From Gracilariopsis chorda (lineage: Eukaryota > Rhodophyta > Florideophyceae > Gracilariales > Gracilariaceae): a stretch of 20,564 nucleotides of DNA. Positions within the stretch are counted from its first letter, which is position 1. Every line of letters begins with the position of its first letter. A program made the position numbers and the translations under genes. Below the pieces are notes generated by a model. That model saw only the letters and a list, made by a program, of their open reading frames with translations, did not search any database and was not told where the DNA came from. The stretch covers positions 1 to 20,564 of the forward strand of contig NBIV01000965.1 of assembly GCA_003194525.1 (NCBI GenBank), written 5' to 3'. Below, piece by piece: positions 1-18,675 of the stretch.

Positions 1-735
1 TGGGCCACCGTGAGAGCGGTTATCCTCCGAAGAGGGACAGTCCGTACCAGCTTAGAAAAGCGGTCGGTAATGACAAGTAGAAACTTGTTTCCACGTTTCG
101 TGGTGAGTAATGGTCCGAGAATATCGATCGCGATAAACTCGAGCGGCGCCCTTGCGGGGAATAGTTTCATCTTCTTCGCATTTTGCGGAGTTGACGCGAT
201 TCTTCGCGCATTCGCTACAAAACCGCACAGTTGCGTAGCAATCCACCGCCATTGCGGGCCAATAGAAATCCCTTCGCAGGGTTAGGTAGAGTTTCCTCCC
301 ACCTGGGTGACCTCCAATGGGGGCGTAGTGTGATAGATGTAACACCCGCGATTGCAGGGAATGTGGTACCACAATCTGTGGGCGGGCTTCGACCTTTTAC
401 GAGGTAGCCTTTGTCGTTTACCCCGAAAGGGAGATCTTCACCACCGTTGATACGGGCACGAATTCTCGTACAGAATGGGTCGCCGAATTGTTCTCGGATC
501 ATTTCTCCGGTGATACCGGTACAAAGTTTCCGGTAACGGGTTCTCAGATTTATCTCGCGATGCGAGTAGTTCGTCAAAATCAGCATCCTCGTCCCAGGTT
601 TCTGGCCTAGCCTCGACGGCATGTTCCGGATCATCCGGGTCTATAGCCATGAAGCATGGGACTTCATCATCCTCCGTTGGGAGTGCTTCCCCACTTGTGG
701 GTAACCCGCGATAAAAGCGTCGGCCTGAGTGTTTC
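1..735 (-). pseudogene. Integrase (Pol C-terminal part), frameshifted and cut by window edge
   Basis: Integrase inserts the cDNA copy into host DNA. The minus frame at about 372-215 carries the N-terminal HHCC zinc-binding domain: two His in HYAPIGGH, then FYWPAMAVDCYATVRFC and a C-x2-C (CSEC) followed by AKNR. Downstream the reading moves to another frame and enters the RNase-H-fold catalytic core, where the first catalytic Asp lies in IDILGPLLTT (about 150-120). The core continues off position 1, so the second Asp and the Glu are outside. Upstream, about 735-440, an acidic linker (DPDDPEHAVE, WDEDADFDE) joins it to RNase H. At least two frame changes occur here (near 440-480 and near 215). 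The family assignment is firm and the present copy is broken. Confidence 0.88.
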
Positions 736-1230
736 TGCGCACCCTTTTTGTAAATGACTTGAAAGTCATATTCCGCGAGGCGGAGTCTCCAGCGCATGAG
801 GCGTCCCGACGGGTCGGAGATATTCATCAACCACCTCAATGAGGAATGATCCGTGTACAAGGTGAAGTGAATTCCCATAAGGTAGGGGCGCAGAGTGGTC
901 ATCGCCCATACGACGGCGAGGCACTCTTTCTCCGATACGGAGTAAGTTCCGCTCATGAACATTGAGCGAACGTGACCAATAACCAATTGGATGTCGTTCC
1001 CCCTCGGGGGTGGTTTGAAAAAGAGCACACCCGACTTGGTAGTCGCTCGAGTCCGTATCTACGGAGTATGGCAACCCAAGTTTTGGGAGATGTAGGATTG
1101 GTGCTGATGTGACAGCCTCCTTTAAGGAGTTAAAAGCTTCCGATTGCTCGGGCGTAAATGTTCCCAGTTTTGGGGGGTTCCCCTTTCGCAACAACGCGTT
1201 CAGGGCGCTGCAGTATCCGAAAAGTTCGGG
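736..1230 (-). pseudogene. Ty3/gypsy RT connection and RNase H domain, frameshifted
   Basis: This is the tail of reverse transcriptase plus RNase H, which removes the RNA strand of the RNA-DNA hybrid in the particle. The stretch around 1190-1090 has the usual connection text (TFTPEQSEAFNSLKEAVTSA). RNase H starts near 1075 with DTDSSDYQVGCALFQ, whose first Asp is the usual catalytic one. It continues with SEKECLAVVWAM (catalytic Glu) and LYTDHSSLRWLM (catalytic Asp), and ends near FQVIYKKG. All three acidic residues are present. An extra T in the run near 945 shifts the frame just before the SEKE motif, and a lost base near 1204 separates this segment from the RT palm and thumb. Further small indels lie near 715-735. 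Confidence 0.9.
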
Positions 1231-2360
1231 ATAAACCGTCGATAGACGTTGACCAGCCCCAGAAAGGAGCGCAGTTCCGTTTGAGTACGGGGTTCTTTCG
1301 CCTCAAAGAGGGATTTGACTCGAGCTTTCTCGATCGCTAACCGTCCAGGACGGATAATGTGACCCAGATACTTCACAGTATCTGTGAAAAACTCGCATTT
1401 CCTCAACTTGAGGGTAATTCCCGCATCGCGGAGTACGGTCAGCACGTCTCGGACGTGAGTGAGATGGTCGTCCAACGAGTTGGAGAAGATGATAATATCA
1501 TCAAGGTAGACCAGACAACTCCGCCACTTAAAGCGGTTGAGTAGAATATCTACTGCACGCTGAAAAGGTGGCGGGGGCGTTGGTTAACCCAAATGGCAAC
1601 CGCTTGAAGCGGTACGTTCCTGCATGGCAGGTGAATGCGGTTTTGTCGCGATCCTCCTGTCTGACAGGTACTTGCCAATATCCCCAATTGGCATCAAGGG
1701 CCGTGAACACGGTGGCGTCTCCAAGGGAGTCAATGCACTCGTCCATACGAGGGATGGGGTACGTGTCCCTAACAGTCACGGCATTGAGCCGGCGGTAGTC
1801 GACACAGAACCTCCAGGTTCCGTCAGCCTTTAAAGCCAGTACAACTGGGGATGCCCAGGGCGATTGAGCGGGCTCAATCACACCTGCGCGGAGCATCTTG
1901 TCCACCTGGGACTGCTCCTCTTCCCGAGCTTTCGGACCTGCCCTGTAAGGGGGTTGTGCAACCGGTCGCGCACCGGGGATTAAATCGATCCGGTGTTCCG
2001 TTGCATCAATCTCGCCAAGCGAGCCATCCCACATTGTGGTGAATTCCCGTAACATAGTACGGAGTTTGTCGCGGTGCGACTCTGGCACGTGGCTGAAGTC
2101 CAGCGCTTCAAGTGCTTTTTCCGGATCAATCCGGTCATTGCTCGATGGAGCATTGTCCTGTGGAACAGGTGTGGTTCGCAATTCCGAGTTACTCGGTATG
2201 TTCGACGCTGAAGTAGCGGTTTCCTCCCCCTCCTTAGACTTGACGTCTTCGGACGGCGGGGTGAACTCCTCAGAAGAGGTGGTAACTCCGAGTACATCGG
2301 CGGCTGTCATCTTCGTTGGCAGCATTCCCATAGGATGGGGGGTTACACTCCCAATTACTT
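1231..2360 (-). pseudogene. Ty3/gypsy reverse transcriptase, one-base frameshift inside the palm
   Basis: Reverse transcriptase copies element RNA into DNA. The reading frame from 2331 starts with a low-complexity linker (about 110 residues), then RT: the finger region with GVIEPAQSPWASPVVLALK, FCVDYRRLN, motif A TALDANWGYWQVPV (first catalytic Asp), and motif B LPFGLTNAPATF. An extra base in the A run at 1563-1566 (plus strand) throws the frame off. The YLDD box (motif C, about 1510-1480) and LRKCEFF...YLGHII are in the next minus frame, which runs to 1200. The upstream end is also shifted near 2360-2400 relative to the protease frame. Substitutions inside the motifs are few, so this looks like a fairly recent loss, or possibly assembly indels. 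Confidence 0.93.
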
Positions 2361-3245
2361 GGTGTTTGACCAGATACTGGGGTGTTTGCCAAGGTTGGCA
2401 ACCAATATCCGGAAAGGAACATCCGGGGAAATGGAGACAATTCCATTAGCCAGCGCCAGCTGGGATTTCTCGTACAACGAGGCGAGGGGTGTATAACCCG
2501 AAGACCGTGTTGACGGGAATTTACCTGTACCCAGAACTTGGGACTCAGCCGGTATAGAAACCGAGGCAGCGACGCGGAGCTTGGTGGACTCGCGGGACGC
2601 GGGCGGTGGTTCCTGCGCAGCAGGGAGCGGAACTTGTTTCCGAGAGGACCGCTTTAGCGGGCGGCGAACAATCGGAACCGACGATCCGTCGTCAAGTTCT
2701 ACACGCCTGAGGCGGGGCCTGATTGCGTCGACAAATCTGTCGCAGTAATCACATCCCAGTATGACTGGTGCTGCCAGTGAACGGCAAACGATGAAGTCCA
2801 ACTTCACCACAGATGTACCAAGTCTCACGACGAGGTCCACTGTGCCCACCGTTTGTAACGGATTGTTGTTCGCATCCGAAATGTCGGGGACCGCGTCAGA
2901 GCGGATACGCGACCGCACAAGCGGGGGTAACAATGATTCCACGACAAAGTTGGGGCCTGCACCTGTACCCAGGACGGTGAGAAACCTCACCATAAACTGG
3001 GGGTCAAGGCCAAGGTCGGCATAGACCTTATAATTGCGCTTGGCCAAGACCAAGACTCTACCGGGAATCCGGGGATTTTTACTCCGTATCCACGGGCGAC
3101 GCAACACACCGAGGTGCGCAGAGTCCGCGTCAGCGGTGTCTTTCCTCGAGAGGACTTTCACCGGGGAGCGAGGCGAGGACGCCTCGGGCGCCAACAGCCT
3201 CGTTTTTGAGGACGCCTCTCCCAAAGGGGAGACTCCCTCAGTTAG
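2355..3245 (-). pseudogene. Retropepsin-type aspartic protease region, catalytic Asp lost
   Basis: Retroelement protease cleaves Gag and Pol. The open frame from 3224 has about 80 N-terminal residues with no clear domain, then FLTVLGTGAGPNFVVESLLP at residues 81-100, a flap-like middle, and ILGCDYCDRFVDAIRP (residues 155-170). The last matches the hydrophobic-hydrophobic-Gly signature near the end of retropepsins. The active site should read D-[TS]-G, but residue 86 is Gly (GGT on the minus strand, 2967-2969), giving G-T-G. One A-to-G change from GAT explains it. The enzyme cannot be an active aspartic protease in this copy. The frame ends in a stop at 2355-2357 just before the RT frame picks up, which looks like an indel. 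Confidence 0.82.
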
Positions 3246-3252
3246 TTTTCCG
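3205..3252 (-). promoter_or_regulatory. Possible Gag/Pol -1 frameshift zone at the Gag stop codon
   Basis: The Gag frame ends in TAA at 3244-3242. The protease frame is open upstream across this point in the -1 frame, so the two frames overlap. The bases just before the stop read GCGGAAAAC, which resembles but does not match the canonical X-XXY-YYZ slippery heptamer. Just downstream, CTCCC-CTTT-GGGAG could form a stem. This arrangement fits the -1 recoding used by many gypsy-type elements, but a plain mutation would look the same. Confidence 0.3.
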
Positions 3253-5415
3253 CCTTCGGCGGTGGGTTGGTTTCCTCGACAACGAGTGCTTCATCCCGTT
3301 GACGGGGGTTTCTATCCGCATAAGCGGGGGTTGCAACGGATGGTTGCGTGATCTCCCGAATCGGGGTGTATGAAGCTTGCCGCGCACGCGGGGTCTGTGG
3401 TAGGGCGTGAGAAAAGTCCGTTTTAGCACGGAGGTAGGAAGCCGTCGGGACGGAACGTTTCTCCTCTGGAGTGAGGGCCTCATAATTTGCCACCACCTTG
3501 GCCATATCCTTCAGTGAACAAATACACTGAGGAGAGGTATGGCCATGGGCATAGCACAGGTGGCAAATGAGAGCCAGCACCGCGACACGCGGATTATTAT
3601 TCCGAGTATCGGAGAAGCGAACCGCAGGGCGGGTGTCAGTCCATCCAGGCCGTTGATAACGGGATTGACCGTTTGAAAACGGGAGTCGTTGGGGTTGAAC
3701 CCGACTGTTACCACCGTATAGAACGGGATCTTCTGTTCCCGTATCATGGGTCATCTCCGTCGTTGACGGTAACTCACTGGTGGGTATCGACACACCATCC
3801 CCCTGCGCTAAATGCACGGTATCAAATCCCTGTCCAGGGTTCCCATCCGCGGTGAGCGGGAGAGAGGAAGCTTCGCTTTCCAGCAACAACGCCTTGGCGA
3901 TTTAGACCGATTGTTCGGAGTTCTTGCACGAAGTGCATCCCCTTCCGCTCGAGCGTGTTGGACCAGCTCGAGGTAGGTGATCCTTCGCTTGTCCTCCCGA
4001 TAACGGGTAACTAAACTCCGGATTGCCGGGTCAAGACCATCAATGAGCATGGTACTGCGCTCCCCAGCGGGGTATACGTTACCACATCTGTGGAAAGCCT
4101 TGTTAAGGCGCACCGAGTAATCGGTCTCGGTCTCTCCAGCACGCTGGCGTGTATCTCGCAAAGCGAGGATAGCCTGCTGAATAGCGGTGTTGGTGGCGTA
4201 GGAGCGCAGAAGATACTGCACAGCCTCCGGCCAGCAAGTAACTCCTCCCTCGGAGGCGCGAGAAGATCCTCGGACAGAGGTGTATTGGTCCTCGGCCACT
4301 CCCCGTAAGAAATACGGTAAAGCCAAATAGGCTTGTCCCTCATTCATACCGAGGATATCGGCCTCCGCTACAAAGCGGGATAGGAAATCCAGTACTAGGA
4401 CTGGGTCCTCTCCAGTAAAATACTGGTTGCGGAGCGAGAGCTGCATTCGCTTAATGCATTCTCGCACCTTTCCCGTACCACGGGGCGTACGTCCAAGTGA
4501 CGAATCTTCAAGCCGGTAGTACCGGTATGATAAAAGCTTCCGGTAATCCGGGTTTGTCGGTTTCAATTCCCGGAGACCGGGGTGTCTTCTCCCCTTCTGG
4601 CGGGTTCGGACCACACCTTCAGTGGCCGATGACCGCTTCGAGCGGGAGGAGTAGCCTCGCTTCTCGTCCTCCGAGTCGGAGTCCGAGGAGCTCGAGCTAA
4701 CCGAATGGTTTCGGGGTGAATCCGACGATGTCGAAGAATCGGAGTCCGAATATTTTCGGTGATGTTTCCGTCGGTGACGGCGTTTCTTCTTCCCAGCAAG
4801 CTGGTCGTTGTGCGATGCCTCGTTGACCGGATCACCCGGGGATGGTTTGTCCATGAGGACGAACTGCTCCAGCGTCTCCAGGCGGGCACCAATCCGATCA
4901 AATCGGGCTTCAACTCCTTCGATGAAGGCGGCGGGTTGTCCCAAACTCTCCAACACGGAGTTGACGTCAGACCGTAAAATACGGAGTTCCTCGGCGACCT
5001 CCTCTACGGGGGTTGCCGAGACCACCTCTTGGAGGGATTTTAGTTTCCCTACAAGGGTGTCATGGGCGGTCCACAGAGCGCGGACCTGGGATTCCAGGGA
5101 AGTCCCCTGGGGGGTGTTATCGCCCGTTCCACGGGGGCTTGAAGCCGCGACAGCGGGAGCAGGCCGGGGTGCCTGGGGCACTGCGGCAACAGCCGGAGTC
5201 GATGCTGCATTCCCCTGCGGGGGTGATAACGAGGGCAAAAGGAGGTTCCGGGGTTCCCGGTCGGGGGTATCATTCCGCGATGAAGCGGCGCCAGCACGGC
5301 TGGAACTTGTCCGTATAGGGATACGGGGTACGAACCGAACTTCGGAAGTGTCCACGTTGTCGCGGGAGCGACTACGCGTAACCACTGGCTCCGCGTCGGA
5401 GGGATTTCTCGACAT
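3242..5415 (-). pseudogene. Gag polyprotein with CCHC zinc knuckle, one internal frame change
   Basis: Gag forms the particle and binds element RNA. The frame opens at an ATG at 5415, 83 bp downstream of the primer binding site. Visible in order: a Ser/Pro/Ala-rich N terminus (1-110); a helical segment with heptad-like spacing (about 110-185); a very basic stretch KKKRRHRRKHHRK (209-221) followed by a Ser/Asp-rich tract; and a capsid-like retrotransposon Gag domain (about 320-500). Near 3895 the frame changes by -1. The next frame (to 3242) carries the zinc knuckle C-x2-C-x4-H-x4-C at about 3565-3524, the usual nucleocapsid element, and ends AEN-stop. The shift lies in the middle of Gag, so I read it as a mutation and not as recoding. 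About 500 residues before it are intact. Confidence 0.9.
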
Positions 5416-5499
5416 GAGAAAATACCGTTACGACGGGAAACGATCACGGAACTTCCGGTGAATGAAAACAAACCTCGTAAGAGGGAAAGCAAAAACCGA

Positions 5500-5517
5500 T
5501 TCTAGGTCGGGAGACCA
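5500..5517 (-). other. Primer binding site, complementary to a tRNA-Tyr-like 3' end
   Basis: The plus strand here reads TTCTAGGTCGGGAGACCA, which has the form of a tRNA 3' end: T-stem 3' half CTAGG, acceptor 3' half TCGGGAG, discriminator A, CCA. The tRNA-like match extends to CGA just upstream and then stops, close to position A58, where priming usually ends. A C1-G72 acceptor end is the hallmark of archaeal and eukaryotic tRNA-Tyr, and the yeast tRNA-Tyr end (CGGGAGACCA) agrees. The site is three bases (CTT, 5518-5520) from the LTR end. The 82-bp leader between it and the Gag ATG (5416-5499) shows no gene. Confidence 0.7.
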
Positions 5518-6068
5518 CTTTGTGGTGCAATGCCCCAAAGGGGAAAAACACCGAAAGACGTCCGGGATCTTCCTCTCACGAGGTGAACCCAGTTGGGTAG
5601 AGCCCTCCCAGAGGTGTCACGGCGAAGCCGGTTTGTAAGACCAGGGACACCTGTCGCGACTCGCGCAGGGAGGTGAAGGCGAAGAATCGGTATCCGCGTG
5701 AGCGGGGCGTGATCCTCAGTAGAGGTATGTTTCCACGTAAGTGGGGGTGTGTGAGCGGATGCGCACACGAGGGCCGCGGATAGCGGGAGGTGCTACCCTA
5801 AAAAGGGGAAAGAGGAAGGACGAGTGGGTCGCGAGAGCGACGAGTAGATACGGCAATGCCGGTGGACAGGACTCCCTATACAGGGCGAAACACCAATATG
5901 ATTGGAACAATTAGTACTCCCAATGATGGGTCTCCTTTAGATGTGCAAGGGGGGTGAACTTCCGTACACTACGGTGCTTCCCTCCAAGGAGGAGTTGAGA
6001 ACACGCGGAGGCGGTAAAGCTCAGAGCCAATTCCCCAGGTTGGGTCCCTTGTTGGGGAAGGTTTACTG

Positions 6069-6093
6069 GTGCGACGGCAGTGCGCCGTCGCAC
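6069..6093. repeat. Perfect 10-bp hairpin in the LTR
   Basis: GTGCGACGGC at 6069-6078 pairs perfectly with GCCGTCGCAC at 6084-6093 around the 5-nt loop AGTGC. It is the longest perfect stem I found in the window and is GC-rich, so it should fold in RNA or extrude in single-stranded DNA. In element orientation it lies downstream of the AT-rich block, that is in the presumed transcribed part of the LTR. No T run follows that would make it look like a terminator. Confidence 0.85.
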
Positions 6094-6119
6094 TAAGTAC
6101 TAGCTTCCCAGAAATGGGT

Positions 6120-6150
6120 GTGAAAATAATAAATAAAATTAACTAAAATA
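6120..6150 (-). promoter_or_regulatory. AT-rich block in the LTR, possible core promoter
   Basis: This is an A/T-only-like run (AATAATAAATAAAATTAACT and neighbours) inside an otherwise GC-rich LTR, about 175-205 bp from the LTR 5' end on the minus strand. On the minus strand it reads TTTATTTATTATTTT. The solo LTR keeps a shorter AATTAACTA block at 9368-9380 in the corresponding place, so it is one of the few conserved pieces. The position suits a TATA-like element at the end of U3, but no start site can be read from sequence. Confidence 0.35.
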
Positions 6151-6330
6151 CTCCACATTCCGTGGCAACATCCACTACTGTGGCCAACCGCCAATTGACC
6201 CAAAACCGTGTCCCACGTGTCCATACCCACCATTGTGGGCGTAGTTCATATACACACTACACAACCGATAATATCGGGAAAGCGTTCAAGTACCCAGAAT
6301 CCCTCCCTGAGGGCGTTGCACTTCATCAAG

Positions 6331-7935
6331 AACCGTTTGCATACCCTTCACTTTTCTTACTAGATGTTCCCCGCCAGCTTTCTGTAGGGCATCTGAGATT
6401 CCAGTATCTGATGGTAGGACATTGTCCCACCAACGGATATTGTCACTGAATCATTGTTGGAACGCAATCGATTGCTAGCGATTGCGACATATACTTCTAG
6501 TATCATAAATTCATTACTTTGTAGCCTTGTTCTGCATTCACCAATACAATGGTCAAGTCAAGGTCAATGGGGCATTTCGGCAGATCTACTCGCAATCGAA
6601 ATGCAGTACAGATCTCACTCTTCGCAAATCTATAATCACACGATTGCAATTCTTCAAATAACTACACCGCCAATAGCACTATACAACCACAAAAAAACAA
6701 AATGACTTCCAGAGTATATAAAACAGAGATGTTCTTTCCGTAACGTTTCGTTCTTCAAAGAGAAAGAATTCTCTGTAGCTGAACAAGTACGCCTTTTCTC
6801 AGCTCTGAACTTTGCGCAGTAGGTGATAGGCCTTACAAGATGTGTTATCATCCCAAAAACGAACGTTTATCTTCAAAATGATGATCTTTTCAAAAACAAG
6901 AAAAATCATCTTTTTCCTATGGTTCAAAAGAATGTAGCGTATAGATTCGGGTACCCTGTGGTCTTCTCAAAACTTCTCTATTTTTCTTGTTGTTTGCAGA
7001 AAGCATTTGGGCAGCGATGTACAAGATAAGCTTTCTGAAACTTCATACCAGATTTGTTCGTAAACGGCTTCGTTTCCTCTCTATGGAATGTGGAGGGAAG
7101 AAATGCAGTTTGATTTTGGATCCGGTAGCAGTTTTGTTGTGTACATATCGCCTGCGATAGCTTTGCTAAGAGGACCAGTCAATCAAAAGAGTGGCATAGA
7201 AGCAATGAGGCACAGCAAGACAAAATGAAGGAGGGATAGGGATGTTAGGTACTAAGAATGCTTAATGGTTCATTTGTTGAACGGAGGAGTTCGGTGAAAG
7301 GCACCTTCGGTTCAATAATAATGACTAATTGGAGTGATAAATTATTTTTGCAATCGGTAGCTACACGCATATATCATCCGAAACTTCTTTGAGCGTGCAC
7401 AGAGTCACGCATTGGCTGACAATGTTGGATTACGAGCCAAAATGAAACCCCTCCCTAGGTTCGCGGGTGTGATTCACCCTTACGTCACATTCTAAGTGAG
7501 TCCAAAACCACGTGACACATTGTAAACACCACTGTCGGCTTAGGCTACGCCAAAAAATGCCCAAAAGGTACTCAAAAATTAATCACTGACGTCAAAAGCA
7601 AATTGTACTAAACCAAATTATAGAAATAGATTATAATCCGCCAAGCAGCCAGTAAAACATTGTCTAGATAAGCTTAGCATATATTACAACGTAATAAACT
7701 TTTAATAAGAACTACGTAGACCGCGATCTACCCCCAGTAAAAAATCTATCCGTTGAATGAGAACCATGTAAATTAATTGATTGCAATACAGTGAAGGGTT
7801 CAGAAATGGGTTTTGAAATTGGTTCAAACTGTCAAAATAGTAGCACAGACTCATTATTTTGCCAGTTGGAACCGTACAATGCATTTTATAAGTAGAATAT
7901 CTCCAATCATTTAAATGGCCAACATGTAACAACCA
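6331..7935. other. AT-richer intergenic DNA, no recognisable gene
   Basis: About 1.6 kb right of the LTR holds only short, frequently interrupted frames on both strands and no protein motif I recognise. A TATATAAA-like string occurs near 6714-6721 but no open frame follows that would make it a convincing promoter. The first 100 bp or so still show a few hairpins. The only other structure I note is the inverted repeat at 6463-6486. Confidence 0.5.
6463..6486. repeat. 8-bp inverted repeat CGCAATCG/CGATTGCG
   Basis: CGCAATCG (6463-6470) and CGATTGCG (6479-6486) flank an 8-nt spacer. The same half-site reappears as CGCAATCG near 6590 and as CGATTGC near 6643, so the motif occurs four times in 190 bp. 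This could be a protein-binding dyad or an element end. Nothing else supports either reading. Confidence 0.5.
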
Positions 7936-9583: not shown

Positions 9584-9732
9584 TGTACGACGTATAAAAT
9601 ATAACACACAAACGAACGACAATATCACTGCCCTTAGGCAATGAGTCTACATTCAATACTCATGCTGTGCTACCTAAATAGATCAAGATAGTCAAAGATC
9701 ACCAAGAGAGCTAAGCCCGCTTAATGTCCCAT

Positions 9733-10107
9733 GGAAGGCTGGTTATGCCACTTCGAGGTTCATTCCATGGCGTCCAGCGGGATATGCCGGCTGCATGTCA
9801 TAGCGAGGGCAGTTTAACCACCTCTGCTTTGCTTTCTGTGGCACCGAGTGGGCTACGCCCACTTAGTGCCACGAGGAAGGCTTGTTATGCCACATTTACG
9901 TTCATTCCATGGGGTCTGGCGGGTTATGCCCGCTGCACATGATGGCAAGGGCGGATACTCCACCTCGGCTCTGCCATCTGTGGCACTAAGTGGGCTATGC
10001 GCGTTTAGTGTCATGAAGAGGGTTGTTTATGCCATTTCTACCTCCAATCCTTATTGTCTAGCTGGTTATGCCCTTGAGACGTCATAGAGAGTGTGGTTGA
10101 GCCACTC
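9733..10107. repeat. 142-bp tandem repeat, about 2.6 copies, with stem-loops
   Basis: Units at 9733-9874, 9875-10016 and 10017-10107 (partial) align with a constant 142-bp step. Units 1 and 2 are close, while unit 3 is more diverged. Each contains repeated GG-TTATGCC-like cores inside short dyads, such as GCGGG-TTATG-CCCGC in unit 2. The right part of unit 1 folds into a long hairpin (9838-9872): GTGGCAC and GTGCCAC outside, AGTGGGC-TAC-GCCCACT inside, separated by 2-nt bulges. Unit 2 keeps part of that fold with G-T pairs. Two frames across it are open for 72-79 codons, but I take these as a by-product of the repeat. Confidence 0.85.
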
Positions 10108-10565
10108 TTATTTCTTTTTCTGTATAATGATATATGTAGCAAGCGTTGTATTGAAGTGGTTTGTTTTACGGCACTTACCTCTCCTGTTTTTCAGAGGCTC
10201 TTTTATGTACGCTATATGATTCTTGTGGCCACTCTTGTGCAATCATCTCCCTAACTTTTGAAATAAACGCCAGATCATGTAACTCTTACCGCTTTTCTTT
10301 AGTTCTATGTATATAGCTGTTCCAGTGTTAGCACTGATTATGTAATGCAGATTTACATAGTCTCATCGTGGTTTAGATAGGCTTGCTACTTCACCTGACC
10401 AGACTGTAAGAAGTTTTTGTATTAGAAAACGGGTTTAATGATGCTGTGCTTCAGTTTGCTCTTCACAAACGTCTGGCATGAACTTTTTGAAAAGCAACAC
10501 TATCATGAATAATGTCTTACTCTATGGATATCCTCTCGACGTGCTTGATTTACTCTGACAGAGAT
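10108..10565. other. AT-rich intergenic DNA, nothing recognised
   Basis: Between the tandem repeat and the recombinase relic I see no open frame of interest, no RNA gene and none of the small-hairpin density of the retroelement. It serves as a useful background stretch for comparison. Confidence 0.5.
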
Positions 10566-12969: not shown

Positions 12970-14442
12970 CTCCGTGATTTCACCACAGCTCAAATGGCTC
13001 ATCATGCTCGCTCAAGCACCGCCCGTGACGCGCTTGGAATCCGGCAATTACGTGAACTCGTAATGAAGGCCTCTAAGTATCCGAAGACACAAAGTATGAA
13101 CCTGCCGGTCATCGGAACCAATCTGAAGGATAGTTTCCATGGAGCTTACAGGAAGGCTACAGCTCGTAAGGATAAGCGATTTGTTGCTGGGAATCGAAGT
13201 TCATGGCAAATCCAACCGTTCTGCATCTAGAATAACTAAGTGGGAGTGAGAACCCTGACTTTGAAGATGCTCTTTCCCTTGGAAGAACGATACAAGAACC
13301 ACCTTGGTTGCGAATTTGACCAGAACCTGCATGTTATGAACGACGAATATTTGTCTAACCTTCACGAATGATTCAAGAAGGAATTAGTAAAGATATCTGG
13401 AGGAGGAAACCAGGAAACAAGAAGCGCAATACGATCGTACATAAACACTGCTCTAAACCCTCAATCCAGCACCGATAAGTCCGCGTCGAGCCGTCCTTTC
13501 TATAAAGAGAAAAGTGATGATGAAAGTGCTGGACCAGTAGCAAGCACAATGGAGAAAGAGGAGGAGCTTTTCGCACGTGCCAAGGAAGAGGAAAACGCAT
13601 TTGCAACTTCCGAGGATGAGTATGATTTTACAGCAGCGATGACGAGGAAGACGATCTAACAAAACAGCAAGTAAATTCCGCAAATGATGTTGATGACGCT
13701 TCTCCGACAGCACGTGCAAAACCAAAGAAACGAAGTCGAAGACCGATAAACGTTCCAAAATAAGCAAGGGAAAAGCGTATTATCAGAAGAGGAAGATTGG
13801 ATTGAGTGCGGGGACTCGCATATCAGTATTCTTCTGTAAGAGTTTCCGATAGGAACATAGTCGAGTTTGACCGGACTTTTCCTTTGGCTTTCCTCGGCAA
13901 GCTTAACATACCGGCGGTAATGAAAGAAAGTGCGAAGGATGTGAGTCTGATAGAAGTAGAGAAACTAAATAGATGTTTTGTTGAATCTACAAATAACGAA
14001 CACCGGGTAATTACTGAGGGATCAAACATTCGCGAGATACACCAGCTTCGGGATGGGCTTGTAGAATTTGAGTCGTCTCGAGACGAACGATATGTATGGG
14101 ATACTAAAGATTTACGGGGTAGAGACATTAAGGGCAGCCCTGACCAATGAGCTCATGATGGTGTTCGACGCATACGGTATTCCAGTTAGCATTAGAGATC
14201 TTTCTTTAATCGCGATTTGTATGACGGTGAACGGCTCTTACCGTGGATTTAATCGTGTGACCATGGATGACACGCCCGGATTGTTCCAACGAGTGACATT
14301 CGAGACGAGCATGAAGTTCCTCAAAGATGCAACTGTGAACGAGATGGAAGAGTTTGTGACAAACCCCAGCTCAGCAATTGCACTCGGGCAGGTGTACGAA
14401 GGCGGCACTGGTGGCTTTCAATTGCTACACCAAGTAAACTGA
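12970..14442 (+). pseudogene. RPA1: RNA polymerase I largest subunit, C-terminal third, decayed
   Basis: The intact protein is the catalytic subunit of RNA polymerase I, which transcribes rRNA genes in the nucleolus. Recognisable pieces, in order: the segment after the trigger loop (DALGIRQLRELVMKASKY, about 13027-13080); a strand reading SDLLLGIEVHGKSNRSASR; FPLEERYKNHLGCEFDQNL (about 13272-13330); an acidic linker (EKEEELFARAKEEENAF), which is typical of Pol I and absent from the Pol II and III subunits; NRCFVESTNNEHRVITEG; and the C terminus YGVETLRAALTNELMMVF to QLLHQVN with a natural stop at 14440-14442. The pieces lie in changing frames, with shifts near 13165, 13625 and 14105 and stops at 13247 and 13369. 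The trigger-loop text before 13020 is badly eroded. No poly(A) follows the stop, so a retrocopy is not indicated. Confidence 0.85.
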
Positions 14443-17933: not shown

Positions 17934-18675
17934 ACTCCCAACTCTGCAACTTGTACTCTGAAAAATCTCAGGCCTCTTCTGGAGCAGAGATCACTCGTTC
18001 CAGCTGTCTCTGCAAAGTTTGTCCTTATGAATCTATATATATGCAAGGAAGGGGTCTTCCGATTCAATTTCAAAGGAAATGAGTTCTTTGATGGTAAAAA
18101 TAGCAGAAGCATCACGAATCTTGAGCGCCGCATATCCAAACTCTCTCGTTCTAATGGATGAACTTGGCAGAGGAACTTCCATCCACGATGGGACCGCCAT
18201 CGCCTATGCAACTTTGTCGTATCTTGTTGCAAACACTGGTTGCACTACATTGTTTGTAACACTTTCCAATGATTGCATCACTTCATGGCCTCTATCCTCA
18301 TCTTATTCGAGCTTCATACATTGACTATCTGGAAGTGAAGGATGGAATGAATAATACAACATCTCCAGAGGTGGACGAATCTGGGCTTAAGAACCGCTCA
18401 TCTCAAGAACAGATCAAGTCCAGAATTATATTCCTTTACAAGTTAACGGATGGTGTGGTTCCCAGTATTTATGTTCTGAATGTTGCACGACTTGCGGGAA
18501 TACCCAAAGAAGTTATTGATGAGGCACAGGTCAAGGCATTCGACCTAGAAACGTCAATGAAGATTCAGAAAAAGTGCGGGAAGATGGCACATCTCATGGG
18601 AATGGCCTTTGGCAGCGAAAGGATGTGGTACAATATATTTCCCGCATAGTAGAACAAGGCTCTAAGACCTGACGC
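17934..18675 (+). pseudogene. MSH3: MutS homologue, MSH3-like ATPase domain, decayed
   Basis: MSH3 pairs with MSH2 to bind insertion-deletion loops in mismatch repair. In order: an eroded Walker A region (about 17934-17960), where the family has TGPNxGGKS but this copy reads TPNSATCT; SLVPAVSAKF; SDSISKEMSSLMVKIAEAS; Walker B and D-loop in SLVLMDELGRGTSIHDG (Asp at about 18157) with AIAYATLSYLV; TGCTTLFVT, favouring MSH3 over MSH6; then the C-terminal part with IIFLYKLTDGVVPSIYVLN and ARLAGIPKEVIDEAQ. Frame changes occur near 18050, near 18255 (two bases lost, where the family's conserved THYP/THFP should be) and near 18610. The loss of Walker A and the frameshifts mean no function. An MSH6 origin cannot be fully excluded. 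Confidence 0.8.

What the first reader, a model, noticed from the sequence alone, without database searches (positions are those of the whole stretch)
1372..1751. Protein-coding retrotransposon sequence packed with perfect mini-hairpins
In 380 bp coding for the RT palm I count nine perfect inverted repeats with stems of 5-7 bp and loops of 1-4 nt: 1372-1388, 1401-1413, 1443-1457, 1472-1483, 1541-1553, 1600-1612, 1656-1668, 1701-1712 and 1738-1751. There are also 4-bp ones such as 1421-1431. Unbiased random sequence would give about 1.5 (4 loop sizes x 1/1024 x 380), so the excess is roughly six-fold by hand count. In the densest part the centres are 19-28 nt apart. The stems differ in sequence, and the frame still encodes conserved RT motifs, so synonymous choice must be carrying the pairing. 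This suggests genome-scale ordered RNA structure in a retrotransposon, or a mutation process (for example intramolecular template switching by its own RT) that perfects short palindromes.
Basis: partly seen in the sequence, partly recalled or inferred. Interest (0 to 1): 0.88.

Follow-up and report, generated by a model that had tools for sequence, protein, structure and literature searches.

The report
Red-algal retrotransposon tiled with mini-hairpins
A family of jumping genes in a red seaweed carries a dense series of tiny, stereotyped hairpins along its length, even inside its genes, apparently kept there by natural selection for a job that is not yet known.

Summary
All nine inverted repeats are where stated; the 380 bp hold 11 perfect stems of >=5 bp against 1.48 in shuffles (0 of 2000 reach 11). 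The excess covers the element part of the window (1-6326) and ends with it. The unit is stereotyped: 11-14 nt, 4-5 Watson-Crick pairs, loop of 3-4 nt, CC...GG base. Inner pairs occur at chance if the loop would be 0-2 nt, at about 0.5 if 3-5 nt, so real hairpins are meant. The element is a Ty3/gypsy chromovirus, probably of Gracilariopsis chorda. Four families 55-72% identical in DNA share the trait; two distant gypsies and four copia loci lack this unit. Stems are conserved against loops and flanks, positions turn over, density stays; centres prefer ~21-nt spacing, though not significantly in the 3' third or in family C. Young variants show no hairpin-perfecting mutation process. Best reading: selection for a distributed hairpin array, perhaps for Gag binding and packaging; function untested, working strand unsettled.

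The parts
1..6326 (-). 5' part of one copy of a Ty3/gypsy chromovirus (5' LTR to integrase, cut by the contig end); carries 142 non-overlapping CC...GG hairpins covering 28% of it
   Evidence: LTR start from 38 or so genome matches that begin at query 273-276, i.e. window about 6326; hairpin count and coverage; domains
5960..6326 (-). 5' LTR, at least this much (other end not determined)
   Evidence: the 3' LTR of another copy (L088:4959-5401) is 99.5% identical to it over 443 nt
3808..5415 (-). gag frame, 535 aa; 41 CC hairpins vs 5.2 in synonymous shuffles
   Evidence: homologues, several with PF03732
2355..3224 (-). frame between gag and RT, probably protease region (label by position and recall, no Pfam match); 16 CC hairpins vs 2.5
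1528..2331 (-). reverse transcriptase frame (RVT_1 E 3.2e-15); 15 CC hairpins vs 2.8
438..1194 (-). RNase H region in two overlapping frames (broken in this copy)
   Evidence: PF17919, PF17917 in 766-1194 and 438-1028
52..372 (-). integrase zinc-binding domain (PF17921)
1372..1751 (-). the finding's own stretch: 11 stems >=5 bp; CC...GG units at 1401-1413, 1421-1431, 1472-1483, 1600-1612, 1619-1631, 1656-1668, 1701-1712 (and 1743-1757 by the same rule)

Best explanation
SHOWN: a lineage of Ty3/gypsy chromoviruses in this red-algal genome carries an element-wide array of stereotyped Watson-Crick hairpins, CC + 2-3 paired bases + loop of 3-4 nt + their complements + GG, in LTR, gag, pol and a 3' antisense gene alike. 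Real hairpin geometry matters (step at the 3-nt loop), arms are conserved over loops and flanks between subfamilies, and density persists while positions turn over. INFERRED: selection acts on number and rough spacing rather than on single sites, so the array serves a distributed function of the element's own nucleic acid. MECHANISM I THINK MOST LIKELY: distributed binding, in which the element's Gag/nucleocapsid recognises the small CC-clamped helix (about 12 nt of hairpin plus about 9 nt of linker) and uses the array to select, condense or package its own RNA or cDNA, as dispersed packaging signals do in some RNA viruses. The Gag step has no direct evidence here. The confidence is for the whole chain; for the part 'selected hairpin array' alone I would say 0.85.
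For: Density and control. Unit: CC-started spans of 12 and 13 nt with >=4 outer pairs 52 and 48 vs 2.9 and 3.1. Steric step: family A inner pair .19/.23/.24 for loops 0/1/2 and .55/.48/.51 for loops 3/4/5; same step in B, C, D. Lineage: 8 of 10 gypsy loci fetched have it, 15-33 observed vs 2.6-3.1. Selection: A1 stems differ from subfamily A2 at 7 of 98 sites, other sites at 119 of 577, loops at 13 of 42, Fisher p .001, while rare variants hit stems at .045 per column vs .0505 outside. Compensation: doubly changed pairs Watson-Crick in 40 of 60 if all other pairs of the hairpin are kept, 215 of 506 overall, background 5744 of 15386 (ordered family pairs). Spacing: period 21.0 in A, 0 of 1000 hard-core placements reach it; B alone 21.0, p .0025; D 20.5, p .0125. 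Vacant middle slots hold stems of >=4 bp in 10 of 29 vs 2.5.
Against: No binding or structure data. The ~21-nt preference is not significant in the 3' third (A+B, n=207, best 20.0, p .10), in the 5' LTR+UTR (n=25) or in C (best 23.0, p .03; at 21 p .71), and weakens if all stems >=5 bp are included. Register is hardly conserved between families beyond shared hairpins. Over all families stems are only a little less divergent (.347) than outside (.386) and loops (.412). Sense-strand G.U pairs are not favoured as in ordinary selected RNA structure. Loops share no motif. Local folding puts the hairpins at mean pair probability only .45 as sense RNA.44 as antisense RNA.60 with DNA parameters.
Confidence: 0.4

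Rival explanations
1. Self-folding against RNA silencing. The element has a conserved antisense gene, so sense and antisense transcripts may coexist. Hairpins that work on both strands would slow their annealing and leave no ~21-nt stretch fully accessible to small RNAs. A G.U on one strand is an A.C on the other, so such hairpins must be strictly Watson-Crick.
For: Strict Watson-Crick pairing without sense G.U preference; antisense frame of 609 aa conserved in family B (39% over 543 aa) and in three database proteins, one of G. chorda at 50%; host has two loci with near full-length Piwi domains and two frames with two RNase III domains each; spacing near 21 nt.
Against: No transcript or small-RNA data. 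No RdRP match was found, but the control was silent too, so this is inconclusive. The hairpin excess is as strong outside the antisense gene as in it. Whether hairpin-free gypsies lack an antisense gene was not tested.
Confidence: 0.22
2. The hairpins work in the single-stranded minus-strand cDNA during reverse transcription, for example by condensing or shielding it.
For: With the CC...GG base given, stems whose one wobble is G.T on the minus strand are enriched (155 vs 70.9) and sense ones hardly (77 vs 62.9), p 2e-5; young substitutions are strand-symmetric, C>T 72, G>A 69, T>C 48, A>G 44; pair probabilities are higher with DNA parameters.
Against: Two further outer wobble types run the other way (53 vs 32.9 and 30 vs 36.1), and the unconditioned test shows no strand asymmetry (245:192 against a baseline of 1504:1347, p .20).
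Confidence: 0.13
3. A mutation process, RT fold-back or template switching, makes perfect short hairpins.
For: Strict Watson-Crick pairing and a 3-nt minimum loop would also follow from fold-back copying; restriction to some retroelements fits.
Against: Young variants create 4 and destroy 30 hairpins against 1.6 and 29.2 (n=170); no hairpin-perfecting cluster seen; loop inversions 1 vs 1.42; stems depleted of fixed differences. A fixed CC...GG base is not explained. Young variants may be mostly post-insertion host mutations, so a process confined to reverse transcription is not fully excluded.
Confidence: 0.07
4. Chance, base composition, codon usage, or palindromic protein-binding sites.
For: The region is GC-richer than most of the window.
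Against: Dinucleotide and synonymous shuffles; gypsy L069 with GC .51 has 0 CC hairpins; the loop-size step is not expected of dyad sites.
Confidence: 0.01

Closest known systems
Dispersed packaging signals of ssRNA viruses such as MS2 (PMC6281560: abstract and passages seen)
   Same: Many small stem-loops with a shared feature, scattered over coding sequence, varying around the feature; that review says spacing and recognition motif both matter
   Different: Here the shared feature is the stem base (CC...GG), not a loop motif; density about 20 per kb over LTR, genes and antisense gene; strict Watson-Crick; a retrotransposon; no protein partner shown
Genome-scale ordered RNA structure (GORS) of some RNA viruses (name recalled; papers only seen as listings)
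   Same: Pervasive excess folding across the element (family A mean z -1.47 sense, -1.38 antisense vs about 0 for host DNA) with coding kept
   Different: One stereotyped 11-14 nt unit with preferred spacing; energy excess weak in families B, C, D (z -0.17 to -0.87)
Ty3/gypsy chromoviruses
   Same: LTRs, RT, RNase H, integrase, chromodomain at the end of pol
   Different: The hairpin array, and a conserved antisense gene of about 610 aa downstream of pol

Membership tests
Ty3/gypsy chromovirus | gypsy-type RT, RNase H, integrase | tested here: met
   RVT_1, RT_RNaseH_2/RT_RNaseH, Integrase_H2C2 in the window; rve in copy L088
Ty3/gypsy chromovirus | chromodomain at the C-terminal end of pol | tested here: met
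   PF00385 E 5.9e-10 at residues 909-950 of the L088 frame; the window copy is cut before it
Ty3/gypsy chromovirus | direct LTRs | tested here: met
   paired LTR matches 10.73 kb apart on C104; 5' LTR of window vs 3' LTR of L088 99.5%
Dispersed packaging signals | many hairpins with a shared recognition feature across the genome | tested here: met
   CC...GG unit
Dispersed packaging signals | bound by the coat/Gag protein and needed for assembly | not testable with these tools
   no binding or assembly data
GORS | folding energy lower than shuffled controls across the genome | tested here: met
   family A z -1.47/-1.38, 17 and 12 of 53 windows below -2; host 2 and 4 of 53; weak in B-D
GORS | structure selected in the sense RNA, G.U pairs included | tested here: not met
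   sense G.U no better than other mismatches
RT template-switch mutation | multi-base changes or loop inversions that perfect hairpins | tested here: not met

The most novel reading that the evidence does not exclude
A retrotransposon lineage has evolved a strand-symmetric hairpin code: strictly Watson-Crick mini-hairpins with a lineage-specific clamp (CC...GG here, little CC clamp in the relative L073), preferably ~21 nt apart, that fold both strands of the whole element, so that an element with an antisense gene avoids double-stranded RNA and silencing, or loads a repeating nucleoprotein, without any fixed site.
Probability: 0.25. Interest if true: 0.92.

Novelty: new variant of a known kind. 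Interest (0 to 1): 0.82.

Why it matters
It would be a case in which almost the whole sequence of a mobile element, genes included, is shaped by one small repeated secondary structure with flexible positions. The copies are many and young (144 scored matches, the window's own included, at 94-100% RT identity, several with a frame of 1885 aa), so the structure, its strand and its partner can be tested directly. The same loop-size rule with another clamp in a relative (L073) suggests an evolving code and gives a simple statistic for scanning other genomes.

Tried and rejected
Mutation by template switching: not supported. Dyad protein sites: contradicted by the loop-size step. Loop-sequence recognition: no common loop. 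A 3' neighbour A: 44% after hairpin GG against 35% after other GG, too weak to use. Register conserved between families beyond shared hairpins: weak (.042 at period 21.107 at 20, n=445), not claimed; the sharper cross-family lags come largely from shared hairpins. Strand: the CC-conditioned wobble asymmetry was not reproduced without the condition, so the strand is left open. A first multi-copy alignment with loci in the wrong orientation was discarded and redone. Periodicity in the first short pieces of B, C, D was not significant; longer pieces gave it for B and D, not C. Structure prediction of P0122, a homologue of the antisense protein, on 3 sequences failed (mean pLDDT 31); no fold search was made. 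The viral-contig scan gave 1 locus without the excess. Ten literature searches listed no paper that I could recognise as describing such arrays; only listings and abstract starts were seen, except PMC6281560 (abstract and passages). The library lacks most subscription journals, and no G. chorda genome paper was read.

Full report
WHAT THE WINDOW IS. The window is contig C903 of a 91.3-Mb, 1081-contig genome held as G000. A Gag relative of Gracilariopsis chorda (P0158, BWQ96_04085) lies on a contig of 367,541 bases, the length of G000 contig C44, so the host is very probably that red alga (Gracilariaceae). Window 1-6326 holds part of one Ty3/gypsy element on the minus strand: RT, RNase H and integrase zinc domain, gag by homology, LTR start near 6326. 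The copy is broken: most matches of other copies to its RT frame stop at residue 258 and pol is split into several frames. Several other copies keep a frame of 1885 aa; the 144 scored matches to the RT (of 3626 candidates, the window's own included) are 94-100% identical. LTR matches on C104 lie 10.73 kb apart. The 3' part of that copy (L088) encodes an integrase core and a chromodomain, then a 609-aa frame on the opposite strand, then the 3' LTR.

THE OBSERVATION. All nine claimed repeats exist. In 1372-1751 there are 11 stems of >=5 bp with loops of 1-5, against 1.48 in dinucleotide shuffles (0 of 2000 reach it). The window has 20-27 such stems per kb in 1-6000, 11 in 6001-7000 and 1-8 beyond; beyond 7001 the 1-kb z-scores against shuffles lie between -0.9 and 2.4. 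Synonymous shuffles, which keep protein and codon use, give 10.5 vs 41 observed (gag), 3.7 vs 19 (RT), 4.8 vs 20 (2355-3224), 15.6 vs 49 (3' pol of L088) and 9.6 vs 31 (antisense frame); all five observed values exceed the maximum of 200 shuffles.

THE UNIT. Listing the hairpins shows a stereotype. In the element's sense strand, windows of 12 and 13 nt that begin CC, end GG and have at least 4 outer pairs number 52 and 48 against 2.9 and 3.1; spans of 11 and 14 also exceed (29 vs 2.7, 14 vs 3.0), 15 and 16 slightly (9 vs 3.1, 6 vs 2.9). In 140 such hairpins of 12-13 nt from families A-D, pair 3 is G-C in 69, pairs 4 and 5 are mixed, and triloops have no common sequence. Non-overlapping CC hairpins number 142 in 1-6326 and cover 28%.

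REAL HAIRPINS. Given three Watson-Crick pairs outside, how often is the next inner pair formed? In family A .19.23.24 if it would enclose 0, 1, 2 nt and .55.48.51 for 3, 4, 5 nt, falling to about .25 by 11 nt. B, C and D show the step (loop 2.29.24.16; loop 3.37.51.42), and so does the outside relative L073 (.22 and .53), though there a loop of 1 is raised too (.35); the distant gypsies L069 and L070 show none. Three nucleotides is the steric minimum of a folded RNA loop (established knowledge). Protein dyad sites or composition would not give such a step.

WHO HAS IT. Of ten gypsy RT loci that I picked, not at random, from the 150 listed, eight show the CC excess (15-33 observed, 2.6-3.1 expected); they form three families B, C, D, about 68-73% identical to A in their best DNA alignments; two, at 36-39% RT identity, have 0. 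Over whole aligned blocks the families are .55-.72 identical. Of four copia loci fetched, L061 has no CC excess (2 vs 1.4), and L082-L084, two families, show no excess at any span tested; L061 alone has a different excess, 19-nt spans with 9-nt loops, 20 vs 4.7. Of ten loci found in public contigs one, L073 (53% RT identity, a contig filed under a bacterial MAG), has 50 stems vs 16.3, mainly of 9, 11 and 13 nt, with only a weak CC excess (11 vs 5.0); the other nine stay below z 2.

SELECTION OR MUTATION. Forty other copies of A were aligned to the window; of 60 loci held, the two cuts of the window itself and 18 repeated cuts of the same copies were left out. They fall into two groups that differ by 19% in the integrase region. 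There, sites in A1 stems differ at 7 of 98, loops at 13 of 42, other sites at 119 of 577 (Fisher p .001 for stems vs other). Rare variants (at most 2 copies) instead fall on stems at .045 per column, outside .0505, loops .083, and 170 isolated ones create 4 and destroy 30 hairpins where random placement gives 1.6 and 29.2. So young variants are blind to the hairpins and fixed differences are not, the mark of purifying selection; the fixed differences come from one region. Among families, 164 of 796 ungapped hairpin comparisons keep every pair (173 gapped ones dropped), 36 of the 164 with at least one compensated pair. Doubly changed pairs are Watson-Crick in 215 of 506, background 5744 of 15386, and in 40 of 60 if all other pairs of the hairpin are kept; these counts use ordered family pairs, so kept pairs can count twice, in the background too. 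Across all families stems diverge only a little less (.347) than outside (.386) or loops (.412). Positions are shared more than by chance (A-B 11 of 37 vs 2.3; the other five pairs 2-9 vs 0.5-1.1, C-D not beyond the null maximum), but most have turned over. Loop inversions, expected of fold-back copying, are not in excess (1 vs 1.42).

SPACING. Distances between hairpin centres in A peak near 21, 40 and 63; the best period is 21.0, reached by none of 1000 hard-core random placements; each half alone gives 21.0 (p .005) and 20.5 (p .002). B alone gives 21.0 (p .0025), D 20.5 (p .0125), C 23.0 (p .03, nothing at 21), B+C+D 21.0 (0 of 400); the shorter pieces of B, C, D taken first had shown nothing significant. 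If other stems of >=5 bp are added the signal weakens (A p .0375, B+C+D p .0075). In the 3' third it is not significant (A+B best 20.0, p .10), nor in the 5' LTR+UTR alone. Where two neighbours lie 36-47 nt apart, the middle holds a stem of >=4 bp in 10 of 29 cases vs 2.5 expected. I call this a preference, not a strict lattice.

WHICH STRAND. A G.U pair on the sense strand is not favoured (.94x, 1.3x, like other mismatches). With the CC...GG base given, stems whose one wobble is G.U on the minus strand are enriched (155 vs 70.9) and sense ones hardly (77 vs 62.9), p 2e-5, but this sum leaves out two outer wobble types that run the other way (53 vs 32.9 and 30 vs 36.1), and without the CC condition there is no asymmetry. 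Folding energies of sense and antisense strand are alike in A (z -1.47 and -1.38). So pairing is essentially strict Watson-Crick and the working strand is open: RNA, cDNA or both.

MECHANISM. Element-wide, position-flexible, and present in LTR, genes and the antisense gene, the array is best read as a distributed function of the element's own nucleic acid. Distributed Gag binding for packaging or condensation fits the shared stem motif, the spacing and the lineage specificity; evasion of silencing fits the strict pairing, the conserved antisense gene and the host's Argonaute and Dicer-like genes. Neither is shown. No paper describing such an array was recognised in the ten literature searches made here (listed in Tried and rejected).

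Noticed in passing
L088:3118-4944 (minus strand); L089 about 2178-3746 (minus strand): Antisense gene of about 610 aa downstream of pol, conserved in family B (39% over 543 aa) and in three database proteins, one from Gracilariopsis chorda (50% over 95%); no Pfam domain; structure prediction of a homologue failed.
   Followed up: partly
L061 (G000:C52:114000-117500): A copia element unlike the main copia families has an excess of 5-bp stems with 9-nt loops (span 19: 20 vs 4.7), perhaps another hairpin geometry.
   Followed up: partly
L090 (G000:C648:600-1800); matches on C483, C648, C777, C944: Pieces of Piwi (Argonaute) domain on opposite strands, with an 83-bp inverted repeat (88%), recur about every 8 kb on several contigs: a repeated element with inverted Argonaute fragments, a possible source of dsRNA against the host gene.
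   Followed up: partly
window 1-760 (sense columns 5690-6410 of the alignment): Near-identical copies fall into two groups that differ by about 19% only towards the integrase side, as if the family were recombinant.
   Followed up: partly
L073 (JALZUP010000409.1): A contig filed under a bacterial MAG (Robiginitomaculum sp.) encodes a gypsy RT and looks like eukaryotic contamination; it has the hairpin excess without the CC clamp.
   Followed up: partly
window 9700-10125: Three tandem copies of a 142-nt repeat, 64-76% alike to the first.
   Followed up: no
window 14068-14442 and 18269-18649: Host exons: RNA polymerase Rpb1 domain 5 and a MutS domain V match just under its cut-off.
   Followed up: no
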